In this document: positions 14,275 to 14,498 of the stretch, one piece after another
Numbering within the stretch: position 1 is the stretch's first letter
How the letters are laid out: each line of letters starts with the position of its first letter
DNA from: Fusobacterium ulcerans ATCC 49185
GTDB taxonomy: Bacteria; Fusobacteriota; Fusobacteriia; Fusobacteriales; Fusobacteriaceae
Reading direction: 5' to 3'
Assembly (NCBI RefSeq): GCF_900683735.1
Contig: NZ_LR215979.1
Location: forward strand, 2,728,001-2,792,000
Length of the DNA: 64,000 nucleotides
Notes under the pieces: model-generated
Databases searched by the model: none
The model's input: the letters and a program-made list of their open reading frames with translations, nothing else
What the model was told of the DNA's origin: nothing
Program-made: the position numbers and the translations under genes

Positions 14275-14300
14275 AAAGTTCGCATTATTACAATAATGAG
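14275..14300 (+). repeat. Left inverted repeat of the promoter element
   Basis: Reads AAAGTTCGCATTA then TTACAA then TAATGAG. Viewed as a recombinase site it is an 11-base arm AGTTCGCATTA, a 6-base centre TTACAA, and an opposing arm TAATGAGAACT whose complement AGTTCTCATTA differs at one position. Two 11-base arms around a 6-base centre is the layout of tyrosine-recombinase (Xer-type) core sites. Confidence 0.75.
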
Positions 14301-14376
14301 AACTTTTACACATCCAAAACTCAGCAAAGTCGTTTTAACATTTCTTAAAAATATCAACTTATGACTTTTTTTGGTA

Positions 14377-14405
14377 TTGACAATATTCTGTTTTAGTAGT
14401 ATTAT
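14377..14405 (+). promoter_or_regulatory. Near-consensus sigma-70 promoter inside the invertible segment
   Basis: TTGACA at 14377-14382, 17 bases, TATTAT at 14400-14405, facing right. No gene on the plus strand lies downstream: transcription would cross the right repeat and meet a hairpin at 14511. In the inverted state it would drive the polysaccharide genes. Confidence 0.72.
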
Positions 14406-14472
14406 TTCACTATACTGTTCTATAATTCTAAAAAGTTTCAAAAGAAATTTTCTTGAAGAGATTTCTACAGGG

Positions 14473-14498
14473 CGCTTTATTGTAATAAGGCGAACTTT
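14473..14498 (-). repeat. Right inverted repeat of the promoter element
   Basis: On the minus strand it reads AAAGTTCGCCTTA, TTACAA, TAAAGCG. It matches the left copy at 23 of 26 positions and has the identical 6-base centre TTACAA, in opposite orientation, which is what inversion by strand exchange in the centre requires. The outer arm is less symmetric than in the left copy. Confidence 0.75.

What the first reader, a model, noticed from the sequence alone, without database searches (positions are those of the whole stretch)
14275..14498. Invertible promoter-like switch upstream of the polysaccharide locus
Two 26-base repeats in inverted orientation (23 of 26 identical) enclose 172 bases. 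They share the exact 6-base centre TTACAA between 11-base arms, the architecture of tyrosine-recombinase core sites. The only strong promoter inside (TTGACA, 17, TATTAT) points away from the polysaccharide operon, and a terminator-like hairpin sits right behind the distal repeat. Flipping the segment would put the promoter upstream of the first, membrane-committing gene. Seen directly: repeats, orientation, promoter. Inferred: phase-variable ON/OFF control of the surface glycan, as known for Bacteroides capsule promoters. I know of no such element described for this kind of locus.
Basis: partly seen in the sequence, partly recalled or inferred. Interest (0 to 1): 0.9.

Follow-up and report, generated by a model that had tools for sequence, protein, structure and literature searches.

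The report
Invertible promoter network in Fusobacterium
The flagged DNA segment is one of about 30 small flip-switches scattered through the genome of a Fusobacterium related to F. varium; each carries a promoter that can be turned toward or away from genes for surface sugars, giant adhesins or DNA-binding proteins, and comparison of related genomes shows that these segments really do flip.

Summary
Two 26-bp inverted sites (14278-14303, 14470-14495) share the 6-bp core TTACAA and enclose a sigma-70-like promoter pointing away from a WbaP-led polysaccharide operon (OFF). The homologous locus in a related genome has the same flanks but the segment inverted, with inner half-sites swapped exactly at the core. 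A site consensus finds 30 inverted pairs in this genome: three polysaccharide loci, 16 autotransporters, nine HU-like-led loci (five continuing into giant-autotransporter operons), one outer-membrane protein, one permease. The core is identical within every pair but differs between pairs, as expected for tyrosine recombination. Among 80 invertons in four genomes, 31 of 257 homologous comparisons show the segment flipped relative to its flanks, tracing to at least five switches. Sites occur in 4 of 98 Fusobacteriota genomes, the same four that carry a ~198-aa FimB-sized tyrosine recombinase at 73% identity or more: the probable, unproven invertase. Switching within a culture and effect on expression remain untested. 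Invertible promoters are known; I found no report of them in Fusobacterium.

The parts
14278..14303 (+). Left recombination site GTTCGCATTA-TTACAA-TAATGAGAAC (core 14288-14293)
   Evidence: Exact match to the genome-wide site consensus; junction swapped in homologous locus L021
14470..14495 (-). Right recombination site, read on the - strand GTTCGCCTTA-TTACAA-TAAAGCGCCC (core 14480-14485); the inner arm departs from the consensus
14294..14479 (.). Invertible segment, 186 bp between the cores, now in the predicted OFF orientation
   Evidence: Opposite orientation relative to homologous flanks in L021 of genome G003
14377..14405 (+). Promoter-like site TTGACA-17-TATTAT, pointing away from the polysaccharide operon
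   Evidence: Best promoter match, 11/12; conserved in 11 homologous elements
14511..14530 (+). Terminator-like hairpin that would stop the OFF-orientation transcript
   Evidence: conserved in most homologous loci
12621..13982 (-). First gene of the controlled operon: WbaP-type polyprenyl-phosphate sugar-1-phosphate transferase (Bac_transf + CoA_binding_3)
   Evidence: Pfam PF02397 E 1e-62, PF13727 E 1e-10
1432..12687 (-). Rest of the polysaccharide operon: glycosyltransferases, nucleotidyltransferase, dTDP-sugar epimerase, GDP-mannose dehydratase, DegT aminotransferase, phosphomannomutase and a weak Wzy-like match
   Evidence: single operon inferred from gene order and strand

Best explanation
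14275-14498 is a phase-variable invertible promoter (inverton). A tyrosine recombinase binds the four 10-11-bp arms of the two inverted sites and exchanges strands within the 6-bp core, flipping the 186-bp segment and its single outward-reading promoter. In the present orientation the promoter fires into a terminator and the WbaP-led polysaccharide operon is OFF. After a flip the promoter reads through a leader of roughly 380 nt into the WbaP gene (ON). SHOWN: the sites, the promoter-like sequence, the opposite orientation at the homologous locus with exchange at the core, 30 pairs with the same site consensus in this genome, core identity within every pair, and further flips at other switches. 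INFERRED: transcription ON/OFF, switching within one population, and the recombinase, most likely the ~198-aa FimB-sized tyrosine recombinase of the int_992109 group (about 60% likely). The three polysaccharide loci share a nearly identical first gene and switch but continue with different glycan genes, so the likely result is a changing surface glycan, combined with independent switching of 16 autotransporters, nine HU-like-led loci (five of them continuing into giant-autotransporter operons) and two other genes.
For: Flipped homologue: L021 aligns to this locus over 3.2 kb at 90% with the inner 224 bp in the opposite orientation, with outer arms kept and inner arms swapped at TTACAA. Network: 60 forward/58 reverse site matches against 6/3 for the reversed-pattern control; 30 inverted pairs. 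Unbiased test: 25 of 25 close site pairs have an identical inverted core, 0 a direct one. Six core classes occur between pairs. Flips: 31 of 257 comparisons, 22 of 172 with both flanks homologous, tracing to at least five switches, one of them the switch that promoter scoring independently calls ON, 958543. Promoter state in this genome: of 25 switches with a clear promoter, 22 point away from the target and 3 toward it (tallied by hand). Targets: PF03797 autotransporters, FadA, HU-like, Bac_transf. Recombinase: 73% or higher identity only in the four genomes with sites, with R-K-HxxR-H-Y positions invariant in the alignment.
Against: No read-level evidence of both orientations in one culture, and no expression data. 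The candidate invertase is not next to the switches in this genome (no site within several kb), and the four genomes form one clade, so co-occurrence counts roughly as one event. XerC/D-like and other tyrosine recombinases are also present and are not excluded. Four to five switches have no clear internal promoter by simple consensus. In the window operon one Wzy-like gene matches only weakly, so the product may not be a complete capsule.
Confidence: 0.9

Rival explanations
1. Miniature transposable element (MITE): terminal inverted repeats with a small payload, spread in several copies.
For: Four copies of the 224-bp unit at 96-100% in this genome.
Against: Homology continues far into both flanks in three of the copies, so the copies arose by duplication of whole loci. 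The other switches share the site consensus but differ in core and spacing. The segment is flipped in place at the homologous locus.
Confidence: 0.02
2. The inversions are real but catalysed by the housekeeping XerC/D-like recombinase or another conserved tyrosine recombinase (int_1340890 group), not the FimB-sized int_992109 group.
For: A XerC/D-like protein is present; 11-6-11 sites are also the Xer architecture; the 190-aa group occurs in most genus members examined.
Against: These recombinases occur in genus mates that have no such sites, whereas the int_992109/int_1678091 group at 73% or more coincides exactly with the sites.
Confidence: 0.27
3. Fossil switches: the sites were once active but are now fixed, mostly OFF.
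For: 22 of 25 switches with a clear promoter are OFF in this assembly; no read data.
Against: Cores are identical in 30 of 30 pairs while the arms differ; opposite orientations exist among paralogues within one genome (958543 and 3783353 in this genome; 912837 and 2099442 in G003) and between genomes; an intact recombinase is present.
Confidence: 0.06
4. Chance inverted repeat in AT-rich intergenic DNA.
For: The region is AT-rich and holds many weak inverted repeats.
Against: 0 of 100 shuffles reach 23/26; 30 conserved copies of the arrangement.
Confidence: 0.01

Closest known systems
Bacteroides fragilis capsule invertons with the global invertase Mpi
   Same: One genome with many invertible promoters sharing a site motif and controlling several polysaccharide loci and other surface genes; PMC5903667 says Mpi inverts at least thirteen regions including seven polysaccharide loci.
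   Different: Mpi is a serine recombinase (PMC5903667). Here the sites have the tyrosine architecture with pair-specific 6-bp cores, the phylum is different, and the main targets are autotransporters and HU-like-led operons. No UpxY/UpxZ-type antitermination was looked for.
Clostridioides difficile RecV and its switches
   Same: A tyrosine recombinase acting in trans on several unlinked invertons (PMC5903667).
   Different: RecV acts on up to six of seven switches with largely unrelated repeats; here about 30 switches share one consensus. Homology of the recombinases was not tested.
FimB/FimE/HbiF-type tyrosine invertases and fimS / upaE switches of E. coli
   Same: Recombinase of ~200 aa without an N-terminal arm domain; a promoter on a short invertible segment; control of fimbriae or an autotransporter (UpaE, PMC6083910).
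   Different: One switch beside its own recombinase genes in E. coli (own knowledge); here many switches, none beside the candidate in this genome. The candidate did not match the NCBIfam tyrosine-type DNA invertase models at E 1e-3.
Akkermansia muciniphila capsule inverton
   Same: Invertible promoter upstream of a capsule locus outside Bacteroidota, in both orientations (PMC13343947).
   Different: Different site motif (CGGATT..AATCCG).
Slipped-strand phase variation suggested for F. nucleatum autotransporters
   Same: Phase variation of fusobacterial adhesins (suggested in PMC6346709).
   Different: That suggestion concerns polymeric nucleotide tracts; no promoter inversion is mentioned there.

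Membership tests
Inverton / invertible promoter (general class) | Inverted repeats flanking a short intergenic segment | tested here: met
Inverton / invertible promoter (general class) | Promoter inside the segment, next to a target gene | tested here: met
   Promoter-like sequence only, by consensus and conservation
Inverton / invertible promoter (general class) | Both orientations observed | tested here: met
   Between homologous loci within and between genomes; not within one culture
Inverton / invertible promoter (general class) | Orientation determines transcription | not testable with these tools
   Needs RNA data from both orientations
Tyrosine-recombinase inversion | Short arms around a 6-8-bp overlap that must be identical in both partners | tested here: met
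   30 of 30 pairs; 25 of 25 in the unbiased set; six core classes
Mpi-type (serine) global invertase system | Small serine recombinase (PF00239) in the genome | tested here: not met
   One PF00239 protein only, 478-aa frame
FimB/FimE tyrosine-type DNA invertase (NCBIfam models) | Score over the curated cut-off | tested here: not met
   int_992109 and int_1678091 give no match to NF007370/NF007371 at E 1e-3
FimB/FimE-like layout | Recombinase adjacent to its switch | tested here: not met
   No site near the int_992109 group except in G002, about 3.5 kb away
RecV-like trans-acting master invertase | Loss of one recombinase locks many switches | not testable with these tools
   Only co-occurrence across 98 genomes available
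MITE / insertion element | Unrelated flanks at each copy | tested here: not met
   Flanks homologous over kilobases in three of four copies

The most novel reading that the evidence does not exclude
One clade-specific FimB-sized recombinase runs a ~30-switch network in which the 6-bp core keeps unlike switches from recombining with each other, and the HU-like proteins encoded first behind nine switches act as accessory factors or regulators of the switches or their promoters, so that the network regulates itself.
Probability: 0.15. Interest if true: 0.85.

Novelty: new variant of a known kind. Interest (0 to 1): 0.7.

Why it matters
If correct, a clade of Fusobacterium that includes F. varium, a gut commensal and opportunist linked to ulcerative colitis and known for its many autotransporters and FadA adhesins (PMC5720691), controls a large part of its surface by DNA inversion. 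That would mean isolates or cultures with the same genome can differ in glycan and adhesin display, which affects adhesion assays, phage sensitivity, serology and transcriptome comparisons. It also supplies a large natural set of sites (80 switches located in four genomes) for working out arm and core rules of a small tyrosine invertase.

Tried and rejected
MITE: my first idea after finding four copies; rejected because flanks are homologous and the segment is inverted in place. Serine invertase: only one, large, serine recombinase in the genome. int_1678091 as the global invertase: its orthologue is absent from G001, which has the sites, and it sits inside its own unrelated inverted repeats, so it is more likely a self-inverting local switch. 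Naming the organism: the genome-contig scan withholds near records, but the plasmid of genome G002 is AP017969.1 of F. varium and its 3.96-Mb chromosome fits strain Fv113-g1 (PMC5720691); the exact species of the window is not established. Sites near distant relatives of the recombinase (80 loci): none. Helical phasing of site spacing: no clear 10.5-bp series in the distances. Structure prediction was not run because family and catalytic positions were clear from sequence.

Full report
OBSERVATION. The inverted pair at 14275-14300/14473-14498 is real, matches at 23 of 26 positions and was never equalled in 100 dinucleotide-preserving shuffles of the region. Between the repeats lies the region's best promoter match, TTGACA-17-TATTAT at 14377-14405 on the + strand. 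It points away from the WbaP-like gene 12621-13982 (PF02397), the first gene of a polysaccharide operon on the - strand. A terminator-like hairpin follows the right repeat.

NOT A TRANSPOSON. The 224-bp unit occurs four times in this 3.84-Mb genome at 96-100% identity. In three copies homology continues through the WbaP gene on one side, so these are three polysaccharide loci with the same first gene. The genes after it differ: the window locus has sugar-nucleotide enzymes including a dTDP-sugar epimerase and a GDP-mannose dehydratase, the locus at 526828 has a kinase, SIS-domain protein and nucleotidyltransferase, and the locus at 2106617 has EpsG and a polysialyltransferase-like protein. The fourth copy (488180) lies before an HU-like gene.

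DIRECT EVIDENCE OF INVERSION. A locus in genome G003 of the same genus (L021) matches the window locus over 3.2 kb at 90%, but its inner segment is reversed relative to the flanks. At the left junction the outer arm AAAGTTCGCATTA and core TTACAA are kept, and the inner arm is that of the right-hand site; the right junction is the reciprocal. This is the product expected from exchange at the 6-bp core. The other two such loci in G003, and those in G001, G002 and this genome, are in the OFF orientation.

A NETWORK. The consensus GTTCkCnTTw-N6-wwAnGmGAAC, with up to two mismatches, gives 60 and 58 matches on the two strands of this genome against 6 and 3 for the reversed-pattern control. They form 30 inverted pairs; two needed a search for a degenerate partner. 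Among the 25 close pairs found with no condition on the core, 25 have identical inverted cores and none a direct match. Cores fall into six classes between pairs, whereas arm positions vary within pairs. This is what tyrosine recombinase strand exchange requires. Targets by position and Pfam: 16 autotransporter genes, nine loci led by HU-like DNA-binding proteins, three polysaccharide loci, one outer-membrane beta-barrel protein and one permease. Five HU-led loci continue into genes for giant autotransporters, four of them with a FadA-type gene in between (one FadA checked by Pfam; the others read from near-identical sequences). Counting the second gene of a tandem, 22 of the 39 autotransporter domains of the genome lie behind a switch; operon extent is inferred from gene order.

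MORE FLIPS. I located 80 such switches in four genomes: 30, 23, 16 and 11 (not exhaustive outside the window's genome). Among 257 comparisons with homologous flanks and inner segments, 31 show the segment reversed relative to the flanks, 22 of them among 172 with both flanks homologous. They trace to at least five switches: 958543 and 3783353 in this genome, and 912837, 2099442 and one of 998560/3448377 in G003. Of the 25 switches in this genome with a clear promoter, 22 point away from their target and 3 toward it; 958543 is one of the three (tallied by hand; two of the 25, at 1011567 and 3109520, were scored from the scan).

RECOMBINASE. The genome has 11 Phage_integrase matches and one large serine recombinase. 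Across 98 genomes of the phylum, exact site matches are abundant (15 to 25 per genome) only in G000-G003; two others have one isolated place each and the rest none. The same four genomes, and no others, carry a ~198-aa tyrosine recombinase at 73% identity or more to int_992109 (L078:7077-7673); relatives at 36-58% occur in eight other genomes without sites. The aligned group keeps the R, K, HxxR, H and Y positions expected of the catalytic residues and is closest, among solved structures, to XerA/Xer proteins. G001 has one intact member, so that group may suffice. Because the four genomes form one clade this is suggestive, not proof.

IDENTITY AND LITERATURE. The Fv113-g1 paper reports 44 autotransporters and 13 FadA paralogues and contains no word beginning 'inver' (PMC5720691). 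PMC11892184 states that the six previously published inverton repeat motifs are from Bacteroidota and Akkermansia, and does not mention Fusobacterium. A survey of 209 data sets lists no Fusobacteria among phyla with inversions (PMC5903667). Searches of the held open-access library found no report of promoter inversion in Fusobacterium. Jiang et al. 2019 itself is not held, so its supplementary tables could already list some of these loci.

LIMITS. No reads or RNA were examined; ON/OFF is inferred from promoter direction. Loci come from assembled genomes, each showing one orientation. The number of independent flips is a lower bound.

Noticed in passing
L079:7975-8779 (genome position about 1677974-1678778): A second kind of switch: the FimB-sized recombinase gene int_1678091 lies inside its own 27-bp inverted repeats (TAATAAAAATATCTTATATTAACCATT), and the whole ~800-bp segment is inverted between this genome and both G002 and G003, with breakpoints at the repeats.
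   Followed up: partly
L094:6043-6674, L092:13908-14541, L077:923-1490, L075:10493-10804 and similar: HU-like (PF00216) genes, often in tandem pairs, are the first genes behind nine of the 30 switches; a pair also lies upstream of the candidate invertase in this genome (L078:5628-6201) and near int_1678091. Phase-variable nucleoid proteins would be unusual.
   Followed up: partly
L159:1680-8202 (F. varium plasmid AP017969.1): The plasmid carries two more FimB-sized recombinases, one of them next to an autotransporter gene, and a ParE-like toxin gene between them.
   Followed up: no
window 14070-14100: A motif TTTATATATTTTGTAATATTTTT in the leader between switch and WbaP gene is nearly identical in most homologous loci; it may be a regulatory site.
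   Followed up: no
L157:5433-7309 and L161:4576-6562: In G002 the candidate invertase gene is followed by a choloylglycine (bile salt) hydrolase-family gene; the layout is the same in G003.
   Followed up: no
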